Of a stretch of 22,333 nucleotides of DNA, positions 1,223 to 19,514 are shown piece by piece. The notes below the pieces were generated by a model. That model ran no database searches. It saw nothing but the letters and a program-made list of their open reading frames with translations, and had not been told where the DNA came from. This stretch comes from a virus. The stretch covers positions 1 to 22,333 of the IMG/VR virus record IMGVR_UViG_3300031463_000035; one strand, 5' to 3'. Position numbers and translations under genes: made by a program. The first letter of the stretch is position 1, and the number at the start of each line of letters is the position of its first letter.

Positions 1223-1240
1223 GGAGAGAGGAGAGTTCCC

Positions 1241-1924
1241 GTGAGAGCAAAGGTAAGAATCGGTGAATTGGTGGTTGACTCAAAACTTATCGAGCTGCGG
1301 CCAATCAACCCGGTCTTTGTGAGCCGCTATCGGCAGTCTTACCGTATGGGGGCTGCAATCCCACCCCTAATTGTGGAGGAGGGGACAAACCGGATAATAA
1401 GCGGAAACCACAGATATACGGCCATGGTGCAGGAATTTGGGCCGGATTACAAAACCGAGGTGATTTACAAAAAATTTGAGGATGAACTGGCGGTCTTGAA
1501 AGAGTTCACTCGGGATAACGCCGCACATGGATATCCTCTGGACGGCATCACCCGGAAACGCTTGGTGGCGGCCATGTTGGATCTGGGAGCGACGATTGAA
1601 GAGGTGGCGAGACTGCTCAATGTCCCGGTCAGGAATCTGGAATCATGGGGCCGGAATTTTGTGGCGGTAATCGGCTCTGACGGCATGCAGCGCCATGTGC
1701 CAGTGAAGCGGGGGTTTCCGGCGGTGCAAACCACCATCACCCCTCAGCTTTATGAAGAGCACAAGCGGGCCGACAGAGGGTTGAAGGTGGAGGAGCTGGT
1801 CGGCCAGCTTTTGCGATGGCTCCGGAATGGCTGGGTCGAGCCCAAAGAGGACATAGTAGCGAGCCTAGATGAACTCCAACGGGAAATTACCCGGTTCTTG
1901 AAACAAGCGGAAAGGGCTGCATGA
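1241..1924 (+). CDS. ParB/sulfiredoxin-fold domain protein
   Basis: A 227-residue protein starting at GTG 1241 with a purine-rich ribosome site (AAGGAGAGAGGAGAG, 1221-1235). The N-terminal 110 residues have the ParB-N layout: a short strand pair, then PPLIVEEGTNRIISGNHRYT (residues 41-60), where the G-N-H-R-Y box is the nucleotide-binding signature. Residues 118-135 (TIEEVARLLNVPVRNLES) look like a helix-turn-helix, so DNA binding is likely. The C-terminus is helical. Phage ParB-fold proteins range from CTP-dependent partition factors to nucleases; which one this is cannot be read here. The stop lies only 3 nt before the first degenerate unit of the TIGR-like array, so its transcript may read into the array. 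Confidence 0.75.
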   Translation: MRAKVRIGELVVDSKLIELRPINPVFVSRYRQSYRMGAAIPPLIVEEGTNRIISGNHRYTAMVQEFGPDYKTEVIYKKFEDELAVLKEFTRDNAAHGYPLDGITRKRLVAAMLDLGATIEEVARLLNVPVRNLESWGRNFVAVIGSDGMQRHVPVKRGFPAVQTTITPQLYEEHKRADRGLKVEELVGQLLRWLRNGWVEPKEDIVASLDELQREITRFLKQAERAA

Positions 1925-1927
1925 AGA

Positions 1928-3141
1928 GATGAAGCCGATAGACTGAAGAAACCCAGAACCCAAAAGCGGACCATGCAATGTAAGAAACCCAGCGGTGAGG
2001 AGCGAGCCAAAAAGAAGAAGCAACCCAAATAGATCAAGCGAGCCAATCGGCAAAAGAAACCCACGAGACGAAAGCGAGCCACGGTAGGCGAGAAATCCAG
2101 AATGGGAAAGCGAGCCACGCAATATAAGAAACCCATAGCCCAAAAGCGAGCCAGTTGAAGGAAGAAGCCCATGAAAAGTAAGCGAGCCATATTCCGGAAG
2201 AAACCCTAGCGGATGAAGCGAGCCATCGCCAATAAGGCGCCCGAAAAAGCTAAGCGAGCCATGTATCGAAAGAAACCCATTCAGGCAAAGCGAGCCATGC
2301 ACCACAAGAAACCCACAAACCACAAGCGAGCCAAATATTTGAAGGAACCCAAAGCTTGGAAGCGGGCCATTAACTATAAGAAACCCAGAGGTTGAAAGCG
2401 GGCCAATGCTTGGAAGAAGACCACAGGGCAAAAGCGAGCCAAGAGCAGAAAGAAACCCAGCTCGCGGAAGCGAGCCATTGGAGGGAAGAAACCCAGAAGT
2501 TATAAGCGAGCCAGATGCCCTAAGAAACCCATGACGAGCAAGCGAGCCAAAAAGAAAAAGAAACCCAGGGCAGGCAAGCGAGCCAAGTGTTGGAAGAAAC
2601 CCATTGAATGAAAGCGAGCCATTCGGCGGAAGAAGCCCAAGGTCCCGAAGCGAGCTACTCTCAGCAAGGAACCCAAGAAGGTAAAGCGGGCCATATGATG
2701 GAAGAAACCCAAGCGGATGAAGCGAGCCATGCTGCTGAAGAAGCCCAACGAATGAAAGCGGGCCACGAGGCCGAAGAAACCCAAGAGCTACAAGCGAGCC
2801 AAAGGTGATAAATAACTCAGCGAGCCAAAGGCTCCAAGAAACCCACAGATTGTAAGCGAGCCCGGGGGGAAAAGAAACCCAGATCACGGGAGCGAGCCAA
2901 GGAGTTCAAGTAACCCAAGCCTCCGAAGCGAGCCAAGGTGGTGAAGAAACCCATTACTGGTAAGCGGGCCATCTAAGATAAGAACCCCAAAGAGTGCAAG
3001 CGAGCCAAAGATCAAAAGAAACCCACAGGGCGAAAGCGAGCCACAATCCGGCAAGAAACCCAATGGCAAGAAGCGAGCCAATTTTTTTAAGAAACCCATT
3101 GAATAAAAGCGAGCCATGAGGCTAAGAAGCCCAAAAAATAA
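1928..3141 (+). repeat. TIGR-like array 1: alternating 9-nt repeats and 9-nt spacers, 36-nt period
   Basis: About 34 consecutive units of [AAGCGAGCC - 9-nt spacer - AAGAAACCC - 9-nt spacer], giving roughly 67 spacers. Examples of the first repeat are at 2036-2044, 2072-2080 and 2612-2620; of the second at 2054-2062 and 2594-2602. Repeats vary slightly (AAGCGGGCC, AAGAAGCCC, AAGGAACCC). The first unit is decayed (GATGAAGCC at 1928). The array ends 18 nt before the tas start codon. Phase is almost perfect: one unit is shortened to 26 nt (2792-2817), one spacer has 10 nt (3043-3052) and the last first-half spacer has 8 nt (3116-3123). Two alternating repeat types with two short spacers per 36-nt unit is the published layout of TIGR arrays (edge repeat, spacer A, loop repeat, spacer B). 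I see no promoter of its own; it may be read from the ParB-like gene. Confidence 0.9.
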
Positions 3142-3159
3142 AGCCTAAGGAGAACCAGA

Positions 3160-4020
3160 ATGAAGACCCAGGACCAAATCGCACTATTAATGTATGCCCG
3201 GGCCCGTGAAGACTTTCAAGACATGCGCAAACGTATGGATAACCGGTTGGGCCGCAAGGCCGATGGCAGCGCTCAAGAGCTAAAGGAACAACGGTTTTTC
3301 GCAGTGGAGGATGTCGAAAATTTCAATTTGATCTCCATGGAAGCACGGCGTAATGAGAAGCAGGTGGAGAAGATGCTTCGCCAAATATTGAACCGCTTCC
3401 GTATCTGGCGAGAGTGGTTAAGCAAAGTCAAGGGAATCGGGGAAATTGCTGCGGCTTGGCTGATCGGGTCCATTGATATCGAGATGGCCGACACCGTGAG
3501 CAAAATCTGGCAGTATGCTGGCCTCAACCCTGGCTTGGTGCGAGGCAAAAAACGGGTGTCTATCAAGGACTACAAACCAGACCAGGGAGAAGTCTGCGGG
3601 ATAATTAAACAGGACGGCAGGGATAAAGATTATATTGTCCTTACCAACACCTTGATAAGGGGCGACCGGCCGACGCCAGGATTTATCCTGCCTTACAACA
3701 AAAAGCTACGGGTTGTTCTGATGGGCATCTTGGCCCCTTCATTCATTAAAACCAAGTCAGAATACGCCCTCAATTTCTACTACCCCATGAAAGCACGACT
3801 GGAACAGGAAACCAACCCGATTGATAGCGTCGGGACTAAAGACGACGGCAAACCCTGGTGTGATGTCAGTAAAGGCCACCGGGACATGGCAGCAAAACGC
3901 TATATGATCAAAAACTTTCTGAAGGATTTGTATGTTGCTTGGAGGACAATTGAAGGGCTGCCAGTTAGGGTGCCCTATGCTGAGGAATACCTTGGCAAGA
4001 AACATATGGGGGCGCGATAG
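3160..4020 (+). CDS. tas: Tas-like protein (Nop/IS110-C-terminal-like), no nuclease domain
   Basis: A 286-residue protein with ribosome site AAGGAG at 3147-3152. Residues 1-88 are helical and charged (coiled-coil-like). Residues 90-125 hold a helix-hairpin-helix-like segment, VKGIGEIAAAWLIGSI, then WQYAGLNPG, the pattern seen in IS110/IS116 transposase C-terminal (Transposase_20) domains. Residues 179-215 (YNKKLRVVLMGILAPSF onward) match that domain's second half. The C-terminus (238-282) is K-G-H-R-D-M-A-A-K-R-Y, then FLKDLYVAWRTIEGLP. No DEDD/RuvC domain precedes it and no HNH motif follows it, so it is not an intact transposase. Flanked by two TIGR-like arrays, it fits a Tas protein of the nuclease-less (TasA-type) group, whose Nop-like domain binds the guide RNA. 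Function beyond RNA-guided DNA recognition is inference. Confidence 0.8.
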   Translation: MKTQDQIALLMYARAREDFQDMRKRMDNRLGRKADGSAQELKEQRFFAVEDVENFNLISMEARRNEKQVEKMLRQILNRFRIWREWLSKVKGIGEIAAAWLIGSIDIEMADTVSKIWQYAGLNPGLVRGKKRVSIKDYKPDQGEVCGIIKQDGRDKDYIVLTNTLIRGDRPTPGFILPYNKKLRVVLMGILAPSFIKTKSEYALNFYYPMKARLEQETNPIDSVGTKDDGKPWCDVSKGHRDMAAKRYMIKNFLKDLYVAWRTIEGLPVRVPYAEEYLGKKHMGAR

Positions 4021-4044
4021 AATATGCAGCAATGTAGATAAATA

Positions 4045-4053
4045 TGCTATAAT
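4045..4053 (+). promoter_or_regulatory. Extended -10 promoter for TIGR-like array 2
   Basis: TGCTATAAT is a perfect extended -10 (TG-N-TATAAT). No good -35 lies 16-18 nt upstream, which extended -10 promoters tolerate. It sits in the short AT-rich gap after tas and would start RNA near 4060, about 25 nt before the first repeat of array 2. This is the clearest sigma70-type element in the region. Confidence 0.6.
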
Positions 4054-4086
4054 ATAACCAATAACTCTAAATTGGCTAAGAAAAGC

Positions 4087-4275
4087 AAATGAGCCAAGGC
4101 AAAGAAGAAGCCCATTCGGTTTAAGCGAGCCACTGCATAAAAGAAGCCCATGCAATAGAAGCGAGCCAAATTATGGAAGAAGCCCAACAACTAAAAGCGA
4201 GCCAATAGGCCAAAGAAACCCACAGGAGGGAAGCGAGCCATCAAAGACAAGGAACCCATTGGGAAGAAGCGAACT
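4087..4275 (+). repeat. TIGR-like array 2: five units plus a terminal repeat
   Basis: This has the same 36-nt grammar as array 1. First-type repeats are at 4087 (AAATGAGCC, degenerate), 4123, 4159, 4195, 4231 and 4267 (AAGCGAACT, degenerate end). Second-type repeats are at 4105, 4141, 4177, 4213 and 4249. There are ten 9-nt spacers, all beginning with A and none identical to a spacer in array 1. Three of the five second-type repeats are AAGAAGCCC plus one at 4105, so this version predominates here whereas AAGAAACCC predominates in array 1. The terminal repeat directly abuts the ATG at 4276. Confidence 0.9.
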
Positions 4276-4728
4276 ATGGAAACAGCAAAAGCCAAAAAAA
4301 TTGACGAAATCCTAAAAAGCCCAGGAAGAATCGAATGTCAGGCCCTAAGGGCCAACATCTCAACCCAGCAGTGTGCCATAAACCAAGCCCAAGCCAAATT
4401 GAACCCCTACAGCCCACTTCAGCATTGTCTTAGCTGCCAGCATCCCCACCGAGCTAAAAACGAGGTCAAGAGCAAGGCTAGCGGCGGAATTTATAACTAT
4501 CACCCCAGAAGCCGAGCTATTCGGGCAGCGGCTGCACGGGGTGAGTTGGAGAGGTTTAGGGCTGGAGGCATGGGGGCTCGGTTGCGGGGCTTGGTGAATG
4601 CAAGCATCCGGGCTGGTTGGAATAAGGACAAGATAAAGCAAAAGCTTAAGGCCATCGATGATGCCGAAACCCGTGAAAAAATGTCCATCCTACATGGATG
4701 GACAGAGGAGTTGAGAGGGCAAACCTGA
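4276..4728 (+). CDS. Hypothetical Cys-rich (zinc-binding-like) protein
   Basis: A 150-residue protein. Four cysteines in the first third, C-x12-C (CQALRANISTQQC, residues 21-33) then C-x2-C (HCLSCQ, near 56-60), suggest a zinc site. The rest is basic and helical (AIRAAAARGELERF; KDKIKQKLKAIDDAETREK), so nucleic-acid binding is plausible. The ATG at 4276 follows the last array repeat with no space, and its only possible ribosome site (GGGAAGAAG) lies inside the final spacer and repeat. Its translation therefore depends on the array transcript unless a later start is used. No named family is recognised. It may be a TIGR-associated protein or simply the next phage gene. Confidence 0.65.
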   Translation: METAKAKKIDEILKSPGRIECQALRANISTQQCAINQAQAKLNPYSPLQHCLSCQHPHRAKNEVKSKASGGIYNYHPRSRAIRAAAARGELERFRAGGMGARLRGLVNASIRAGWNKDKIKQKLKAIDDAETREKMSILHGWTEELRGQT

Positions 4729-4732
4729 ATTC

Positions 4733-5227
4733 ATGACAAAGGGCGGTGAGGATAGGCTGTTCATCGGCGTCAAGGAAATCGCCGAATTCCTGCGCCTACA
4801 TTGGCGCACCTGTTACCGCCATCTCAAGGCAGGGCGCCTCCCTGCCAGACAAGACAGCTTGGGGCGTTGGGTTATGACCGCTGAAGACTATTACCAGACA
4901 TTAAGGCCGCCGCAAAAGGAGGAGGATGGAACCCCAGATCAAGGTTTATGCAGGGGTGAAGTGGGGCCTGTTGGAACCCACGGTGATTCTGGCGGCGGAA
5001 TATCATCCCCCGCCAGCGGACCGGATACACCTCATACGCGAGCTTTATCGACGGGAACTCTACCTGGAGGAGCTTCTGGCGATCGCCAGCGCTTGGCGGG
5101 AGGAACTGCAAATCAGACGGTTCTTCTGCGACCCAGCGGAACCGGAATTGATCAACCGCCTGCGCCGGGCCCGGCTCCCCGCGGTGGCGGCCCCCAAAGA
5201 GCAAAGCCTGGCCCTGAACCTGATTAA
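4733..5227 (+). CDS. Excisionase-type helix-turn-helix protein with an overlapping-frame tail
   Basis: A 164-residue ORF. Residues 9-58 form a clear MerR/excisionase-type (HTH_17) unit: FIGVKEIAEFLRLHWRTCYR, then HLKAGRLPARQDSLGRWVMT. After about residue 64 the frame overlaps the TerL-nuclease-like gene (from 4926), and the translated tail is Gly/Pro/Ser/Thr-rich without hydrophobic pattern, which looks like an out-of-frame reading. Either the protein truly keeps this tail, or an indel near 4910-4930 has separated an HTH domain from the downstream nuclease-like domain. The function of the HTH part is probably DNA recognition; the ORF end is uncertain. Confidence 0.6.
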   Translation: MTKGGEDRLFIGVKEIAEFLRLHWRTCYRHLKAGRLPARQDSLGRWVMTAEDYYQTLRPPQKEEDGTPDQGLCRGEVGPVGTHGDSGGGISSPASGPDTPHTRALSTGTLPGGASGDRQRLAGGTANQTVLLRPSGTGIDQPPAPGPAPRGGGPQRAKPGPEPD

Positions 5228-5435
5228 ACAACGGCTGGCTAATACCCGGGAAGGCAAACCAGGGGGGCTGACCATTTCCCGGGATTGTGTGAACACCATA
5301 CCGGAGTTTATGAAATACCACCTGCCAGAAGGTAAGAATAGGCCAGCGGACGCCGACGCTCACGGCCTCAAAGCTCTGCATTTTCTGGTTTTGGGTTTGA
5401 GCCTGGAAACAACACCGAGGGTGAGATGGCTATGA
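4926..5435 (+). CDS. TerL nuclease-domain paralogue, probably inactive
   Basis: A 169-residue protein, ATG at 4926 behind AGGAGG at 4918-4923. It aligns by eye with the RNase-H-like C-terminal nuclease of large terminases: VYAGVKWG (7-14), RRFFCDPAEPELI (64-76), LTISRDCVNTIPEFMKYHLP (115-134) and HGLKALHFLV (146-155). In active enzymes the first motif is G-V/I-D-W/F-G and the last is A-L-D-A-L-R-Y. Here both aspartates are lysine (K12, K149), while D69 is kept. It lacks the ATPase domain. It overlaps the HTH gene. It may be a decayed terminase copy, or a DNA-binding protein reusing the fold; the other nuclease gene at 9427 is the better candidate for the working enzyme. Confidence 0.65.
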   Translation: MEPQIKVYAGVKWGLLEPTVILAAEYHPPPADRIHLIRELYRRELYLEELLAIASAWREELQIRRFFCDPAEPELINRLRRARLPAVAAPKEQSLALNLIKQRLANTREGKPGGLTISRDCVNTIPEFMKYHLPEGKNRPADADAHGLKALHFLVLGLSLETTPRVRWL

Positions 5436-7126: not shown

Positions 7127-8524
7127 ATGTCCAATAATATACCCATAAAAATTTTTCAGGGCGTGACCCCAAAACCCTTCCGGGATTACCTGAACTTGGT
7201 TTTGGCAACTCTAAAGGACAAATACAAAAGGTTGATTATACCCTGCGTCGGCCAATTCACTATCCCAAGCGTGGCGGTCAACAGCGGCTGGCTAGCCGAG
7301 AAAATCTTAACCAGCGATATCAGCCTCTATAGCTCCATCCTTGGATATGAAATCTCCGGAAAGCCATTGGAAGAGCTGGGAATCAAAATCAACGACAACT
7401 GGCTTATCGACCACCTGGGCCAATATCTGGAAGACCCCAATTACCAAGCTGCGGCCATCCTATATGCCATGAAATGGGCCCAAATCAAAGGTAAGAACCA
7501 GTATGAGACCTATTTTAAAAGAGACCTGGAAGACAACCTATTAACTCACCTGAACAGAATACAACAAACCCTTCTTGACATGAAGATCAAGCTAAAGGGC
7601 CTGCGTTATGAGATCAAAGACGTCTGGGACGTCCTCAACGAGTCCCTGGATGACCCTGAGAACATACTCTACATCAACCCACCAGGCACACCTGGCGGCT
7701 ATAAGAAAATGTTTGACTTTGGCGATAAAATCACTTGGAACGAACCAGCCATAGCAGAGTTTGACGCCAGAAAGGGGCCGCCAAAACTCCTGGGAATGTG
7801 CCTGTCAGGTAATGCCCTGTCCCTCATTTACCGCTACAAAAAACTAGAGCCGGAGCATCAGAATACCGCCATCTACTTGAGAGAGTATAACAAGGAACGC
7901 ATCGACTATATCCTATCAAACAGGCCCGAGCTATTCCCCAAAGTCTCAGAATTTCGCAAAACCAATATACGGCCATCTAAATATATGTTATTGCCAACTA
8001 CTCACGTTATTACCCCGGAATCAAAGATTGTTTTCGTCAAAGCGAGTAAAGAGGAAGCGCTATATTACCGCAACCTTTTTGTCCACAAATTAAATGCTGT
8101 TAGATCCGAACGCTATCTATTCGGAATCATGGATGGCTACCTATTTGCTATTACTGGTCTGCATTTTGCAGATTTTTTTGTTAAAGGTGATGAGTATATC
8201 AAAGAAACATTCGGGGTCACCGTGCCACACCCCAAATATCCACGACTCACCAAACTGTTTATGATGTGTCTCGCTTCCAAGGCATTTTATGAAAACCTGC
8301 TGAACATCGAACCAAAGCTAAACTTTTATCAGGCTAGGGGCATTAAAACCGTCAACTTAACGCCATATCCCGAACATAAAATTTTACGCGGCATTTACAA
8401 ATTAATAAAACGGGAGAAATACAAGAACAACCTGTTCAAACTGACTTATCAAAGCGATTGGAAGCCCATGACATATAAGGATTGCATCTTAACCTGGATG
8501 AAAAAGGAAAAGATCAATGGCTGA
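7127..8524 (+). CDS. Adenine-methyltransferase-like protein (putative antirestriction MTase type)
   Basis: 465 residues. Two parts resemble SAM-dependent adenine methyltransferases: an N-terminal IPCVGQFTIPSVAVNSG followed by LTSDISLYSSILGYEI (38-76), which fits a SAM-binding motif I and following acidic residue, and LYINPPGTPGG (181-191), a variant of the catalytic (D/N)PP(Y/W) with Gly in place of the aromatic. Phage proteins of this shape are often labelled putative antirestriction adenine methyltransferases. The long C-terminus has no motif I know. The missing aromatic may mean altered or lost activity. The last 8 nt overlap the ParB-fold gene at 8517, so the two are probably a functional pair. 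It starts just downstream of the tRNA-like gene. Confidence 0.55.
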   Translation: MSNNIPIKIFQGVTPKPFRDYLNLVLATLKDKYKRLIIPCVGQFTIPSVAVNSGWLAEKILTSDISLYSSILGYEISGKPLEELGIKINDNWLIDHLGQYLEDPNYQAAAILYAMKWAQIKGKNQYETYFKRDLEDNLLTHLNRIQQTLLDMKIKLKGLRYEIKDVWDVLNESLDDPENILYINPPGTPGGYKKMFDFGDKITWNEPAIAEFDARKGPPKLLGMCLSGNALSLIYRYKKLEPEHQNTAIYLREYNKERIDYILSNRPELFPKVSEFRKTNIRPSKYMLLPTTHVITPESKIVFVKASKEEALYYRNLFVHKLNAVRSERYLFGIMDGYLFAITGLHFADFFVKGDEYIKETFGVTVPHPKYPRLTKLFMMCLASKAFYENLLNIEPKLNFYQARGIKTVNLTPYPEHKILRGIYKLIKREKYKNNLFKLTYQSDWKPMTYKDCILTWMKKEKING

Positions 8525-9233
8525 ATTTATCTGCGAAGCCTATGAGGACCTGGAATTATGGCGGGTCAATATTGATCAATTGCGCGAACAGGATATCAAC
8601 GCGCAATGCATGTCGCCCGAAATGCAGGAACGCCTCACCTCGAATATTGCCAAGGAGCAACGCTTGGAATCGGTGCCTTTCGTCCTGAAGCGAGAAGATG
8701 GCAAGTTCGACATTATCTCCGGGCACCATCGCTACAGGGCAGCAAGAAATGCCGGCCTCAAAGAAATCATCGTCTTGGCGGAAACCCGGCCTCTGGACCG
8801 CAGCCGGGTGGTATCCAAGCAGGTTGCCCATAACCGATTGGTAGGCACCTCTGATCCCCAGGTGCTCAAGAAATTGTGCGAGGAAATGGTCAGGCCAGAA
8901 GACCTGCTGGAGGCCTTTATTAACAAAAGCGACTTGGAAATCAAATACCAACCGGTGCCCATAGACGATATCATCATAAAATACGATTGGAAAATCCTGG
9001 TTCTGAGTTTCTTACCCTCACAACTAAACGACATCAAGTCCCTTTGTGATGCAATACCCCCAAAAACCGCTATGGTAGGGGCTTGCGATATAAAAATCTT
9101 TGATGAATTCCGAGAAACCTTACTGGCTCTGGGGAAAGCAGAAGATATACGCAACCTGGGAACCGCTGTGGCTAAGATGGTAGAAATCACTAAAGAATAT
9201 CTAGCGGGTAAGACCGCTACGGAGAACATGTAA
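8517..9233 (+). CDS. ParB-fold protein coupled to the methyltransferase-like gene
   Basis: 238 residues. Residues 16-100 show a ParB-N domain: W-R-V-N-I-D-Q-L at the start, then SVPFVLKREDGKFDIISGHH followed by RYRAARNAG (about residues 48-77), with S-G-H-H-R-Y as the nucleotide-binding box, and a conserved helix with KQVAHNRLVGTSD. The C-terminal half (after about 130) is helical and unassigned. The ATG lies inside the end of the upstream gene (8-nt overlap), giving tight coupling. Such proteins beside phage DNA methyltransferases may recruit or regulate them; that is inference. It is the second full ParB-fold gene in the window and not a close copy of the one at 1241. Confidence 0.75.
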   Translation: MAEFICEAYEDLELWRVNIDQLREQDINAQCMSPEMQERLTSNIAKEQRLESVPFVLKREDGKFDIISGHHRYRAARNAGLKEIIVLAETRPLDRSRVVSKQVAHNRLVGTSDPQVLKKLCEEMVRPEDLLEAFINKSDLEIKYQPVPIDDIIIKYDWKILVLSFLPSQLNDIKSLCDAIPPKTAMVGACDIKIFDEFRETLLALGKAEDIRNLGTAVAKMVEITKEYLAGKTATENM

Positions 9234-9426: not shown

Positions 9427-9933
9427 ATGAGCCATAACCTAGCCGTCTTCAGCTATAACCCCCAGGGAGAGCTTTACCTTGGTATCGATTTCGGCTACCG
9501 TAACCCCTTTGCCTGCTTATGGATTCAGCCCAGGGATAGAGGTGAGCGGGTGCTGGTGTTGGACGAATACTACCAGCGTTTCCGCACGACCCTGGAAAAC
9601 GGCAAGGCTATCCTAGCCCACCACCAAGCTAGGGGCTACGGTTCTATAACCTGTGCCTTTGCCGACCCCTCAGACCCAGACAAGCGGGCCATGCTGTCGG
9701 AAATCCTGGGGGTGGAGGTAAAGGCCCCGCGGCTGCCGGTGGAGGTGGGCCAGGAACTGGTGCGGCAATGGCTGAAAGTAAGGCCGGAAGATGGCTTGCC
9801 TGGCCTCCTGATCCACCACCGCTGCAAGAACCTGATCCGGGAACTTACGGGCTACATGGTGCATGAACCTGGGAAAGGTGAGCATCACGCCTTGGATGGC
9901 TTAAGATATTTCTTTGCAGGTTGGCAGTCCTAA
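9427..9933 (+). CDS. terL: Terminase large subunit, nuclease domain (separate gene)
   Basis: 168 residues forming only the RNase-H-like nuclease half of TerL. LYLGIDFGYRNPFACLW (17-33) carries the first catalytic Asp (D21), VLVLDEYYQ the conserved Glu (E47), TCAFADPSDPDKRAM the second Asp (near 80), and HHALDGLRYFFAGW the last Asp. These are the residues that cut concatemeric DNA for packaging. The protein begins with LAVFSYNPQGEL, which in ordinary TerL is the linker right after the ATPase; the ATPase gene at 11710 ends with FDLSVHVI, just before that linker. So TerL is split at the domain border, and the halves are in reversed order with 1.8 kb between. The start ATG has a weak ribosome site. 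Confidence 0.85.
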   Translation: MSHNLAVFSYNPQGELYLGIDFGYRNPFACLWIQPRDRGERVLVLDEYYQRFRTTLENGKAILAHHQARGYGSITCAFADPSDPDKRAMLSEILGVEVKAPRLPVEVGQELVRQWLKVRPEDGLPGLLIHHRCKNLIRELTGYMVHEPGKGEHHALDGLRYFFAGWQS

Positions 9934-11709: not shown

Positions 11710-12657
11710 ATGGCGTGGCAGGGGATTGAATTCAAGGCTAACAAGTGTGTTTTGCCTCCGCCGGCTTCTGTTGCTGCCCCTAAGGAAATCCGGCAGTTGG
11801 TGGATTATCACCAGGCTTGCGGGTTTGACAGCCCGGAAGAGCTGTTGGACTTTATCAAGGTCTTCTGGGGCATCCATATCCCCCGGGCCAAGGTCTGCCC
11901 GGAACATACCCCACCAGCGGAGTATGTTACCGCTGCCTTTTTTGAGGAGGCTCTGGATTGTGTCTGCTGGGCCAACCGGGGCGGCGGTAAGACCTTCGAC
12001 GGCGCTTTGGTGACCTGGCTGGACTCGGTGTTCAAGGCGGGCTGCGAGACCAAAATCCTGGGGGGGTCCGGGGAGCAGAGCCTCAGGATGTATGAGCACA
12101 TGAAGGGCTTTATCACCCCTCCCTTTCAGCACCTGGTGGAGGGGGAGGCCCTGCGCACCCGCACCCATCTGGTGAACGGCTCCAATGTCCAGATACTCAC
12201 GGCCTCAATGAAATCTATCCGGGGCCCCCACCCCCAGAGGCTCAAGCTGGACGAGGTGGACGAGTTTGAGGATCGCATTTATGAAGCCGCCCTCCTGATC
12301 CCCAAATCGACCCGGGGCATCAGGGCTAGCGTCCAGATTTACTCCACCATGCATAAAGCTTACGGCCTGATGAGCCGGGTAGTGGCCGAGGCAGCGGAGA
12401 GCGGCTACCGGTTGTTCAAATGGTGCGTTTTCGACGTCATGGAAAAATGCGTGAACCGGGACTGCGAGACTTGCGAGCTGTGGGAGGAGTGTGAGGGCAG
12501 GGCCAGGAACGCCGACGGCTTTTACCCGGTTGAGGACGCCATCACCGCCAAACGGCGGGTGTCCCGGGAAACCTGGGAGGCGGAGATGCTCTGCCGGATG
12601 CCCAGCCAGGAAGGGCTGATTTATAAGGAGTTTGATTTGTCTGTGCATGTCATCTGA
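11710..12657 (+). CDS. terL: Terminase large subunit, ATPase domain (separate gene)
   Basis: 315 residues, the DNA-translocating ATPase half of TerL. Walker A is ANRGGGKTF (88-96) and Walker B is LKLDEVDE (178-185) with the catalytic Glu. The coupling segment near ASVQIYSTMHKAYG follows. A cysteine cluster, C-x4-C-x2-C-x5-C (about 249-263), may bind zinc and is found in some terminases. The protein stops after IYKEFDLSVHVI, precisely where single-chain TerL would continue into the nuclease linker; that nuclease is the gene at 9427. The two must meet in trans to package DNA. The first gene after the sigma54 promoter. The ATG at 11710 is the only sensible start, although its ribosome site is poor. 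Confidence 0.88.
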   Translation: MAWQGIEFKANKCVLPPPASVAAPKEIRQLVDYHQACGFDSPEELLDFIKVFWGIHIPRAKVCPEHTPPAEYVTAAFFEEALDCVCWANRGGGKTFDGALVTWLDSVFKAGCETKILGGSGEQSLRMYEHMKGFITPPFQHLVEGEALRTRTHLVNGSNVQILTASMKSIRGPHPQRLKLDEVDEFEDRIYEAALLIPKSTRGIRASVQIYSTMHKAYGLMSRVVAEAAESGYRLFKWCVFDVMEKCVNRDCETCELWEECEGRARNADGFYPVEDAITAKRRVSRETWEAEMLCRMPSQEGLIYKEFDLSVHVI

Positions 12658-13458: not shown

Positions 13459-13644
13459 ATGTTGATTGAGCAATTAACGGAAGAAATTAGGCGGGCTTTG
13501 ATCAATCATCGCTGCCACCACAAGGCTTGTGATTGTTACAAAGCACGAGAACTCTTAAATCTATTGGAAGCTTTGGCTAGAGTGAGATATCCCTGGGCCC
13601 CTGATCTGGTTGTGAGAACAGAGTTTAGAGAGTTTAGGCGGTGA
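13459..13644 (+). CDS. Small hypothetical protein
   Basis: 61 residues from ATG 13459 behind a GGGGGTG purine run; the frame is open upstream, but that part overlaps the end of the previous gene. Contains a cysteine/histidine group, NHRCHHKACDCYKARELLN (about residues 15-33), possibly metal-binding, then a leucine-rich helix. The stop overlaps the GTG start of the methyltransferase gene (GTGA at 13641-13644), so the two are coupled. Confidence 0.6.
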   Translation: MLIEQLTEEIRRALINHRCHHKACDCYKARELLNLLEALARVRYPWAPDLVVRTEFREFRR

Positions 13645-14195
13645 TAAAAGGGGAGTATCGCACTATCCTTATTGACCCCCCATGGCAGGAAAGGGGCGGG
13701 GGCCGGATCAAGCGGGGGGCAGACCGGCACTACCGGCTGCTGAGCACCCCGGAGATCATCGCCACTATCCTGCGGTGCGAGATCTTCCGCCCTGCCCCCT
13801 CTGCCCACCTCTACCTATGGGTAACTAACAATTTCCTGCCAGACGGCCTGCTGGTGGTGCAGGCGTTGGGCTTCCATTACAAAACCCTGCTCACCTGGGC
13901 CAAAGACCGTTTCGGCTTGGGCCAATATTTCCGCGGCCAGACCGAACACATGATCTTTGCCACCAAAGGCCCCCACCTAGCGGCCAAGGCAAAAAACCAC
14001 TCCACCCTGATCTATGCCAAACGAGGCCGGCACTCTGCCAAACCGGAGGCGGCTTATGAACTAATTGAAGCGGTCTCACCAGCTCCCTACCTGGAACTGT
14101 TTGCCCGCACCACACGGCCAGGCTGGGACTGCTGGGGCGAGGAGGTCCAGCCCGGAACCAGGCTGTTTGACGGCTTGGTGCTGCATGCCTATTAA
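13641..14195 (+). CDS. MT-A70-family adenine N6-DNA methyltransferase
   Basis: 184 residues. It opens YRTILIDPPWQERGGGRIKR (6-25), with the catalytic D-P-P-W typical of MT-A70/Ime4-type enzymes. HLYLWVTNNFLPDGLLVVQA (about 56-75) and the Y-K-T-L-L-T-W-A-K strand are the family's next conserved blocks, followed by GQTEHMIFATKG and the closing block P-Y-L-E-L-F-A-R-T-T-R-P-G-W-D-C-W-G (about 150-167). These enzymes methylate adenine in a sequence context and in phages commonly protect DNA from restriction. It starts with GTG overlapping the previous stop. It is the last gene before the 1.2-kb gene-free region. Confidence 0.88.
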   Translation: MIKGEYRTILIDPPWQERGGGRIKRGADRHYRLLSTPEIIATILRCEIFRPAPSAHLYLWVTNNFLPDGLLVVQALGFHYKTLLTWAKDRFGLGQYFRGQTEHMIFATKGPHLAAKAKNHSTLIYAKRGRHSAKPEAAYELIEAVSPAPYLELFARTTRPGWDCWGEEVQPGTRLFDGLVLHAY

Positions 14196-15421
14196 CTCAT
14201 ACCAATAACATAATACCATCACCCAAGTAACGCTTATGACAAAACCCGGTAATACTGGGCGACGGTAGGGTTTCCCCTCATTACCGAAGTAACTTACGAA
14301 TAATATATCCCTTACAATATAATAAAAATATCGCAATATAATAAAAATATCGCAATATGATAAAAATATCGCAGGCGGTGTCCCGGCGATTGTTCGATAG
14401 TGTTTTGGTATAAAAAATTGGCTTTTACTGTAAAAATTTTTTTACCGTGTAACTTTAATTAATTATTATAAAATCGGGTTTTGTCATTTTGCCCAATATA
14501 AATTTTTATACTCTGTCTTTTTTCTTTATCTATAGCCTTGCCGTCGGGTGGTTTGTTGTTGCCCTGTTATCGAGATGCACAAGTAACTATATAAAACTAT
14601 TACCAAAAAGGGAATGAAAAGATTTTCACGGGCCAAAAATAATAAGTCCTTTCGGTAGCTTAGGCATACTGAGTGCAATATTGATAATCAAACAAAACAC
14701 AAAATAAAAAAAGGAGGTGAGAGCGAGAGAGAGCGGCAAGCCGACAAAGGCGCCACCAAATAACCCGCCGGATTGGGGCCCAGGGGAGCAGCCGGGTCCC
14801 TCACAAAACTCCCCAAAAACCGGAAGGCAGACGGCGGGACGCTCAAAAAAAGAAGGGCAACCTGGGATAGCAACCAGGGGAAAAACAAATGCAAATTCCG
14901 AGCAACCCTTTAAAGCCTTGGCGCCAGCGACCAGGAGCCCAGGTGAGGGAGAGGGTGAGGCGGTTCTGGGTCCCACGGGGCGGGCGCAAGTCAAACCGTG
15001 GAAACGCAGATAGGCGGCGCAACCGAAAGCGACCAGCAACTGAGCGGCTTGATAAGGAATCTAAAGGCTCACGTGTTTTTGAGTGGCACGAGAAGAACTC
15101 TGGGGTCCTGGCCCCTTAACCAGGGCGGAGCTAAGAACCGGGAACGAGGCGAAACCGGTAGTCAGCCAAAGCAAACTGAGGCAAGGCCAGCCGGCCCGTG
15201 GTGCGTGCGACGGGAGGGCCGGAAGGAAGGCGAGCGGCGGCAGGCAAGCGAAAGCGCACGGAATTAGCAACCGGGAAGGGCGACGTGAAACCTGAAACCC
15301 AGCGGGCGGGCGGCCCATAAAGCCCAAAGCAGTTTTGGCTCTGAAGGGGGGGCGGAAACGGAAAACCGGTTCTGGTCTCCCATTGAGCGCCAAAGCTCAA
15401 ATAAAAAAAGGAGGCAGGACG
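14196..15421. other. Gene-free 1.2-kb region: iterons, AT-rich tract, GC-rich structured tract
   Basis: No frame here is convincing. The longest (14717-15013 and 14889-15119 on +, 14626-15039 and 15061-15393 on -) give low-complexity Pro/Gly/Arg products; the GTG at 14717 even overlaps its own AGGAGG. From left: inverted repeat CGGTAAT/ATTACCG (14247/14280), three 19-bp iterons (14316-14372), very AT-rich DNA (14400-14640), then from about 14700 a purine-rich, GC-rich tract with many hairpins. Strong ones are CCGGCCC/GGGCCGG at 15191-15224, CCACGG/CCGTGG near 14973-15001 and a 7-bp GGGGCCC/GGGTCCC stem near 14776-14802. The tract begins and ends with the same AAATAAAAAAAGGAGG string (near 14702 and 15399). 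Replication origin and/or long structured RNA are the main options. Confidence 0.6.
14316..14372 (+). repeat. Three tandem 19-bp iterons
   Basis: AATATAATAAAAATATCGC occurs at 14316-14334 and 14335-14353 exactly, and at 14354-14372 with one change (A to G at the sixth base). They abut without spacers and lie beside an AT-rich tract, the arrangement of initiator-binding iterons at plasmid and phage origins. No initiator gene is recognised nearby. Confidence 0.7.
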
Positions 15422-18603: not shown

Positions 18604-19514
18604 TAACTTCGGTCGATGTAAAACCGTGTGAATTGCTGGGACGCCCTTAGAGCTTTGGAGGCTACAGCATAGGCGGAAACGCCAAGTGCGAAGGCTGGAA
18701 AACTCCAAAGATTGGGTAATCAGCAGCCAAGCCCCTAAGTCCTGAGCGATAAGGGGAAGGTTCGACGGCTATCCCGCAAGGGAGTAGGGACCAAGAGGTT
18801 CCGAAGCGCACGGCAGGTTTTTCCCCTCTCTCGGTATTTTTATCCCCGCAGCAAATCTTCTTCTTCCTCGCCCTTAAATAAATATAAGGAGAATGATTGA
18901 TATATGTGGGCAAAGAAATATGAACGCTGCATTAATTGCGGCGAAACAAGAGTCAAGCACATGGCTAAAGGTCTTTGTGCCAGGTGTTACTCTTACCAAT
19001 ATGCACATGACCCCCAGAAATCTGAGAGGGTAAGGGAACAAAAAAGGCAATGGTATTTCCAGCAAGGTGGCTTCATGTATGGCAAGAGATTGCGTGAAAA
19101 AAGGTGGTTCGACGGCAAGCGTGAGGCAATCTTGGCAAAAGCTAAATACCGTTGCTCTAAATGTAAACGCAAACTTCCAGCTACAAAATTGGTTGTTCAC
19201 CATAAAGATGGTAAAGGTAGGGGCTCAAAGAATTCCAATAATGAGGATTCAAACCTGATTGCTCTTTGCAGAGCCTGCCATTTGAATATACACAGATACG
19301 AAATTTGCAAATATCATGAACGGCAAAAACTAAACAGATGGGCGAGGAAATACGATTGTTGTTTGGAATGCGGGACAACAGAAAGAAGGCATAGAGCTTT
19401 TGGCTTATGCTGGAAATGCTATAGCGTGAAGAGAGGAAAAACTTGAAGATATAGCCTGGACTATAGCGAAAGCTATAGAGGGCGGTCGGAATCGGGCCGC
19501 CTGCAACACAATCG
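18604..19514 (+). mobile_element. Group I intron in the AAA+ gene
   Basis: 911 nt. P1: exon bases CATCGAT (18597-18603) pair with intron GTCGATG (18612-18618), leaving the required U-G pair at the 5' splice site. The intron ends with G (19514), and exon 2 begins GAA, which can pair with intron TTC (18608-18610) as P10. The core contains AATCAGCAGCCAAGCC (18718-18733, P4 side) and AAGGTTCGACGGCTA (R element). P7 forms between GGCTAT (18767-18772) and ATAGCC (19451-19456), the latter inside AAGATATAGCC, a near-consensus S element. P9 is CTATAGC-GAAA-GCTATAG (19461-19478), followed by a GGCGG/CCGCC helix. The endonuclease gene lies between the two P7 strands. Removal restores an in-frame Walker B. 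Confidence 0.9.
18904..19446 (+). CDS. HNH homing endonuclease inside the group I intron
   Basis: 180 residues, ribosome site AAGGAGA upstream. Residues 80-125 hold the HNH core: CSKCKRKLPATKLVVHHKDG, then NNEDSNLIALCRACHLNIHR, with the H-H catalytic pair, Asn, His and two zinc-binding cysteine pairs. Two further cysteine modules flank it symmetrically: CINCGETRVKHMAKGLCARC (10-29) and CLECGTTERRHRAFGLCWKC (156-175). Both have C-x2-C, a basic stretch, G-L-C-x2-C, and so look like duplicated zinc fingers for DNA binding. The stop overlaps the S element. The enzyme should cut the intronless AAA+ gene and drive intron spread. Confidence 0.88.
   Translation: MWAKKYERCINCGETRVKHMAKGLCARCYSYQYAHDPQKSERVREQKRQWYFQQGGFMYGKRLREKRWFDGKREAILAKAKYRCSKCKRKLPATKLVVHHKDGKGRGSKNSNNEDSNLIALCRACHLNIHRYEICKYHERQKLNRWARKYDCCLECGTTERRHRAFGLCWKCYSVKRGKT

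What the first reader, a model, noticed from the sequence alone, without database searches (positions are those of the whole stretch)
1928..4275. A TIGR-Tas-type RNA-guided system in a phage genome: two dual-repeat arrays around a Tas-like protein
Seen: two arrays in which two distinct 9-nt repeats alternate every 18 nt with 9-nt variable sequences between them, around a protein with IS110-C-terminal/Nop-like features and no transposase catalytic domain. Known: TIGR-Tas systems (described in 2025) have arrays of edge repeat, spacer A, loop repeat, spacer B processed to about 36-nt dual-spacer tigRNAs, used by Tas proteins whose Nop domain is related to IS110 transposases. Inference: this locus is such a system, with about 77 spacers. 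It is neither CRISPR nor a protein-coding repeat.
Basis: partly seen in the sequence, partly recalled or inferred. Interest (0 to 1): 0.95.

Follow-up and report, generated by a model that had tools for sequence, protein, structure and literature searches.

The report
Phage TIGR-TasA guide array with ParB
A phage of uncultured deltaproteobacteria carries a 3.5-kb cassette that encodes a nuclease-free RNA-guided DNA-binding protein, a ParB-like partner and about 39 paired-spacer guides: a real member of the TIGR-Tas systems described in 2025, and a useful one because relatives with and without the cassette can be compared.

Summary
Two dual-repeat arrays (1928-3141, 34 units; 4087-4276, 5 units; 77 spacers) with a 36-nt period flank a 286-aa protein (3160-4020). 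The interpretation also holds. The protein passes NCBI's TIGR_Tas model (139 bits, cut-off 100), fails the IS110 model, and matches the solved TasR and TasH by profile and predicted fold. It has no nuclease domain, so it is a TasA. A DNA scan with the repeat pattern alone found over 100 viral stretches; 93 of 124 array loci held encode a Tas relative. The edge repeat, AAGCGAGCCA, is that of the tested array of Salicola phage CGphi29.

Added here: sister phages lack the block (RusA joins directly to orf4733), so it is a cassette. Across related arrays, spacers A and B are inherited as a pair (90% against 25% across edge repeats), with no end polarity. Targets remain unproven: one exact 16/16 match lies 30 nt upstream of tasA in the closest relative, but there is no general enrichment. 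Verdict: new member of a known kind.

The parts
1241..1924 (+). tasParB: ParB/Noc-like protein, 227 aa
   Evidence: ParB-like PHROG hits (E 4e-4); predicted fold (pLDDT 81) matches pNOB8 ParB-N, Noc, ParB, KorB (best E 2.5e-6); invariant G-N-H-R box and presence beside tasA in the related loci aligned
1928..3141 (+). TIGR array 1: 34 units of edge (AAGCGAGCCA) - spacer A (8) - loop (AAGAAACCCA) - spacer B (8), 36-nt period
   Evidence: starts with a degenerate edge (GATGAAGCCG, 1928-1937) and ends in a truncated edge (AGCCTA, from 3142)
2810..2819 (+). degenerate loop repeat AAATAACTCA whose following spacer B is missing (damaged unit)
3160..4020 (+). tasA: 286-aa solo Nop-type Tas protein without nuclease domain
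   Evidence: NCBIfam NF052498 TIGR_Tas_endo 138.9 bits, cut-off 100; IS110 model 31 bits, cut-off 140; PDB profile hits TasR 9mty 1e-14 and TasH 21kl 2e-13; Foldseek TasH 7.6e-7, TasR 1.1e-5
4087..4276 (+). TIGR array 2: 5 units, ends in degenerate edge AAGCGAACTA
4159..4194 (+). unit with spacers AATTATGG / ACAACTAA, whose predicted target occurs 16/16 in relative X upstream of its first tasA
   Evidence: weak
3034..3070 (+). unit with spacers CAATCCGGC / ATGGCAAG, shared whole (odd 9-nt spacer included) with two arrays of relative X
4276..4728 (+). 150-aa ORF of unknown function, part of the cassette (also in X, 61%; absent from sisters lacking tas)
1223..4732 (+). whole cassette between RusA (809-1222) and orf4733; absent in L016, L054, L019, where RusA is followed directly by the orf4733 homologue

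Best explanation
This is a TIGR-TasA system of the tasParB subtype, carried as a cassette by a phage of Deltaproteobacteria. One operon (tasParB, array 1, tasA, array 2) is transcribed on the + strand. [quoted passage not shown] A TasA dimer binds one tigRNA through the AAG...CCA ends of its two repeats. It then binds DNA in which A pairs with one strand and B with the other, bending but not cutting it, because it has no nuclease domain. Shown here: family membership, array anatomy, conserved ParB partner, cassette nature, pairwise inheritance of spacers. Inferred from the published relatives: processing, dimer, DNA binding. Inferred only: the bound complex acts as a block, probably with TasParB, against competing mobile DNA (about 50% likely) rather than regulating the phage itself or helping its integration or partition. 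The confidence given is for the system type and RNA-guided DNA binding, not for the purpose of the binding.
For: NCBIfam TIGR_Tas model above cut-off, IS110 below. The PDB profile search from the window's own family finds only TasR 9mty (1.3e-14) and TasH 21kl (1.6e-13). Foldseek ranks TasH and TasR first, IS621 next. The only phage-database relative is Salicola phage CGphi29, the source of the tested SpTIGR-TasH (PMC12045711), whose array carries the same edge repeat AAGCGAGCCA. tasParB with tasA and 10-nt repeats is the arrangement described in PMC12045711, found here in the window and the related loci. Spacer pairs inside a unit are conserved together 172/191 times, across edges 42/169 (Fisher 8e-39, but related arrays are not independent), as expected if A and B specify one target. 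Array RNA is unstructured (z -0.25), as expected for the dual-repeat type.
Against: No rho-independent terminator is seen on the + strand after the arrays, although the paper calls this typical. No natural target set was found: pairs match related phages no more than shuffled or expected numbers. The TasA model is of moderate confidence (pLDDT 69.6). One unit is damaged. No expression data.
Confidence: 0.9

Rival explanations
1. A truncated or domesticated IS110-family transposase beside unrelated tandem repeats.
For: Sub-threshold Pfam Transposase_20 hit; PHROG label 'transposase'; Nop/IS110-C fold kinship.
Against: No RuvC/DEDD domain; IS110 model far below cut-off while the TIGR_Tas model is above it; array plus Tas recur together in many contigs.
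Confidence: 0.02
2. The arrays encode a repetitive protein (36 is divisible by 3; a 340-aa reverse-strand ORF crosses part of array 1).
For: Long reverse ORF 1865-2887.
Against: 3-17 stops in each frame over the whole of array 1; indels break the frame; relative X also has stops in every frame of its three arrays; the variable parts differ as spacers, not as codons. The reverse ORF follows from purine-rich spacers.
Confidence: 0.01
3. A CRISPR or CRISPR-like array.
For: Repeats and variable spacers in an array beside an effector gene.
Against: Two alternating 10-nt repeats with 8-nt spacers, no cas genes seen in the window, effector of the Tas family.
Confidence: 0.005
4. Same system, but its main job is inside the phage: TasA-tigRNA and TasParB control the phage's own gene expression, partition or integration rather than fight competitors.
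For: Operon with a ParB-like protein; no nuclease; the paper raises inheritance and integrase-aid roles.
Against: No exact or one-mismatch self-target in the window for any pair; sister phages do without the cassette.
Confidence: 0.3

Closest known systems
TIGR-TasA with tasParB (Faure et al. 2025, PMC12045711, as described in its methods)
   Same: tasA without nuclease, operonic ParB-like gene, dual-repeat arrays with 10-nt repeats placed around the genes, viral context
   Different: Long array (34 units; the paper gives 5-15 as most common); extra ORF 4276 in the cassette. Whether this very contig is in the paper's tables could not be checked (supplements not available here).
SpTIGR-TasH of Salicola phage CGphi29
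   Same: Same edge repeat AAGCGAGCCA, 8-nt spacers, 36-nt units, Tas protein 29% identical in the alignment (25% by tblastn); processing and cleavage shown experimentally for it
   Different: TasH has an N-terminal HNH nuclease that the window protein lacks; loop repeat AAGACAACCA instead of AAGAAACCCA; no tasParB found beside it
TaTasR (PDB 9mty)
   Same: Nop fold, profile match E 1.3e-14, Foldseek E 1.1e-5
   Different: TasR has a RuvC nuclease; its repeats begin UG rather than AAG
IS110-family RNA-guided transposases (IS621, ISCro4)
   Same: Nop-like C-terminal fold (Foldseek E 6.5e-3 and weaker)
   Different: The window protein has no DEDD/RuvC domain and lies beside guide arrays; model score far below the IS110 cut-off

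Membership tests
TIGR-Tas | Tas protein with Nop domain | tested here: met
   NF052498 above cut-off; TasR and TasH profile and fold matches
TIGR-Tas | Array of two alternating 8-12-nt repeats with spacers of about 9 nt (8 in SpTIGR) | tested here: met
   10-nt repeats, 8-nt spacers, 35 composite matches against 0.02 expected
TIGR-Tas | Array adjacent to the tas gene | tested here: met
   Array 1 ends about 20 nt upstream and array 2 begins about 70 nt downstream of tasA; 93 of 124 array loci held encode a Tas relative
TIGR-Tas | Matching box motifs at both ends of edge and loop repeats | tested here: met
   Both repeats run AAG...CCA; these positions are almost invariant in 38 copies each
TIGR-Tas | Array processed to 36-nt tigRNAs bound by the Tas protein | not testable with these tools
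   Needs small-RNA sequencing; the 36-nt period is consistent
TIGR-Tas | Tandem-spacer DNA targeting (A on one strand, B on the other) | tested here: inconclusive
   One exact and one one-mismatch match in relative X (permutation p 0.003); no enrichment elsewhere; pairwise inheritance of A and B
TasA type with tasParB | No nuclease domain | tested here: met
   Aligned with TasH the protein begins after the HNH part; no nuclease-domain model hit
TasA type with tasParB | Operonic ParB-like gene | tested here: met
   1241-1924, same strand, ends just before array 1; fold matches ParB/Noc/KorB
IS110 transposase | N-terminal DEDD/RuvC domain | tested here: not met
   286-aa protein without it; model score 31 against cut-off 140
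CRISPR-Cas | Single repeat of about 25-36 nt and cas genes | tested here: not met

The most novel reading that the evidence does not exclude
TasA and its tigRNAs act as programmable parS sites: the RNA-guided TasA dimer marks DNA and loads TasParB, a ParB/Noc/KorB-like clamp, which then spreads to silence or mis-segregate competing phage or plasmid DNA. The arrays renew themselves by swapping whole edge-bounded units between relatives, and the window's array is aimed in part at its nearest relative (exact site 30 nt upstream of that phage's tasA).
Probability: 0.12. Interest if true: 0.85.

Novelty: new member of a known kind. Interest (0 to 1): 0.5.

Why it matters
The system class is known, but its natural targets, the origin of its spacers and the job of the nuclease-free TasA with TasParB are open questions in the founding paper. 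This phage lineage offers a natural comparison: close sisters with and without the cassette, one relative with a doubled tasA and three arrays, and named bacterial host lineages. The comparison of about 150 arrays gives evolutionary support, independent of biochemistry, that spacers A and B form one functional unit. It also shows that arrays change as mosaics of whole units, without the end-polarity of CRISPR adaptation.

Tried and rejected
First assignment of edge and loop repeats was reversed; comparison of related arrays corrected it and the target search was repeated with the right pairs (on). Target searches in own genome, related phages, all held loci and tas-proximal regions: no enrichment over shuffled pairs (reversed pairs; right pairs). 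Collection scans for targets of the two most widespread units of other arrays gave 50 and 33 hits, by my own estimate about the number chance would give; a cluster in a gene that looks like a major capsid gene is explained by protein conservation. Enrichment of single 8-mers in the phage's own genome is weak and not specific to it. Plasmid database: no tasA. Genome collection: no tasA relative at this sensitivity. Rfam finds no family in the locus. Array polarity: none (mean position 0.53, p 0.37). PADLOC: no model for the cassette's proteins.

Full report
Observation. The two arrays and the 286-aa gene are as described. The composite pattern edge-N8-loop occurs 35 times, all in the arrays, against 0.02 expected from shuffles. 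Written with edge AAGCGAGCCA first, array 1 has 34 units (1928-3141) and array 2 has 5 (4087-4276), 77 spacers in all. Array 1 has stops in every frame and frameshifting indels, so it is not coding. Its RNA (1946-2600 folded) is no more structured than shuffled sequence (z -0.25), and Rfam has no family for the locus.

The protein. Pfam gives only a weak IS110-C hit. NCBIfam's TIGR_Tas model scores 138.9 bits (cut-off 100), while the IS110 model scores 31 (cut-off 140). A profile of the window's own relatives, excluding the CGphi29 protein, finds exactly two PDB sequences: TasR 9mty (1.3e-14) and TasH 21kl (1.6e-13). The AlphaFold model (pLDDT 69.6, pTM 0.63) matches TasH first (E 7.6e-7), then TasR (1.1e-5), then IS621 (6.5e-3). 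Aligned with TasH it begins at about TasH residue 61, so the HNH domain is missing. It is a TasA. The NCBI name 'endonuclease' would be misleading for it.

The neighbour. ORF 1241-1924 ends just before array 1. It has ParB-like PHROG hits, an invariant GNHR box, and a predicted fold (pLDDT 81) matching ParB, Noc and KorB. It lies beside tasA in all the related loci aligned. The founding paper describes such tasParB-tasA operons with 10-nt repeats and arrays upstream, downstream or between (PMC12045711).

Relatives. The only relative in annotated phages is Salicola phage CGphi29, the source of the experimentally tested SpTIGR-TasH; its array has the same edge repeat. Relative X (L007, IMGVR 3300005573_000321; 92-93% identical TasA) has tasParB, two tasA genes and three arrays. 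A DNA scan with the repeat pattern alone returned 118 stretches before reaching its limit. Of 124 array-bearing loci held, 93 encode a Tas relative and 15 a tasParB relative; some of these loci overlap or are near-identical.

Cassette and host. In sister phages L016, L054 and L019, RusA is followed directly by the homologue of orf4733; tasParB, arrays, tasA and orf4276 are all missing there, and no tasA was found elsewhere in six sister virus records or three genomes (an empty answer there is weak). Close relatives of the phage's AAA gene lie in Deltaproteobacteria and Syntrophales genomes, so the host is probably of that group.

How arrays change. In alignments of related, non-identical arrays, spacers joined by a loop repeat stay together 172 times of 191, and spacers joined by an edge repeat 42 of 169. 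Most of this signal comes from one large clade (66/73 against 7/70); W and X show 4/5 against 1/4, and one pair with a long collinear block shows no contrast. The window itself shares one whole unit with X, including its odd 9-nt spacer. Shared units show no preference for either end. In the block duplicated between arrays X1 and X2, the aligned differences lie in spacers and not in repeats. Interpretation: whole units, bounded by edge repeats, are swapped or lost, and A and B are kept together because both are needed.

Targets. Using the geometry deduced from the paper's 8-nt 3' overhangs (A followed by reverse complement of B, gap 0-2), no self-target exists with fewer than two mismatches. 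In X there is one exact match (unit 4159, L007:5956-5971, 30 nt upstream of its first tasA) and one with a single mismatch (unit 2468, L007:10804, in the orf6186 homologue, where by my count the window's own copy has three mismatches). Mispaired spacers give 0.03 such hits on average (permutation p 0.003), and 0.42 Mb of other sisters give none. But over all arrays and loci, and near tas genes generally, true pairs do no better than shuffled ones, and X was examined post hoc. This is a lead, not a finding.

Mechanism. The steps up to RNA-guided DNA binding follow from the tested relatives. What binding achieves is open. I judge blocking of competing mobile DNA, probably with TasParB, as most likely (about 50%), and self-regulation or partition as the main rival.

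Novelty. The locus is a new member of a known kind; whether this contig is already in the paper's tables could not be checked.

Noticed in passing
window 18604-19512: The phage's AAA+ ATPase gene is split right after its Walker B aspartate (LFID|EIEKG) by an insert carrying an HNH endonuclease ORF (18904-19446); sisters have an uninterrupted gene. Rfam group I intron RF00028 matches (E 1.1e-9, 44.3 bits, below the gathering score of 50): a likely group I intron with homing endonuclease.
   Followed up: partly
spacers of both arrays; also L007, L131, L185: Spacer positions 6-7 are pyrimidine-purine far more often than other steps (46% in the window, 61% in X, 64% in L131/L185, about 23% over all other arrays), in both A and B. 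Not general: some loci avoid it. Could be an intrinsic site preference near the DNA bend; unexplained.
   Followed up: partly
L007:6001-6894 and 7668-8546: Relative X carries two tandem tasA genes (about 92% identical to the window's) and three arrays, two of which share a duplicated block of units.
   Followed up: partly
window tasA residues 126-167: A beta-rich stretch present in all seven TasA relatives aligned and missing in TasH; could be the strand-separating wedge or a TasParB contact.
   Followed up: no
window 4926-5435 and 9427-9933: Two separate ORFs that look to me like terminase nuclease domains (no Pfam hit), apart from a terminase-like ATPase ORF at 11710-12657; the packaging gene may be fragmented or duplicated.
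   Followed up: no
window 7127-9233 and 13641-14195: DAM-like/GNAT-like fusion followed by a second ParB-like protein, and an MT-A70 methyltransferase: probably DNA modification genes.
   Followed up: no
window 14315-14373: Three copies of a 19-bp AT-rich tandem repeat (CAATATAATAAAAATATCG).
   Followed up: no
L118:4874-6611 (minus-strand coordinates): Array of 95 repeats (about 47 units), longer than the window's; arrays above 30 units occur in a few viral contigs.
   Followed up: no
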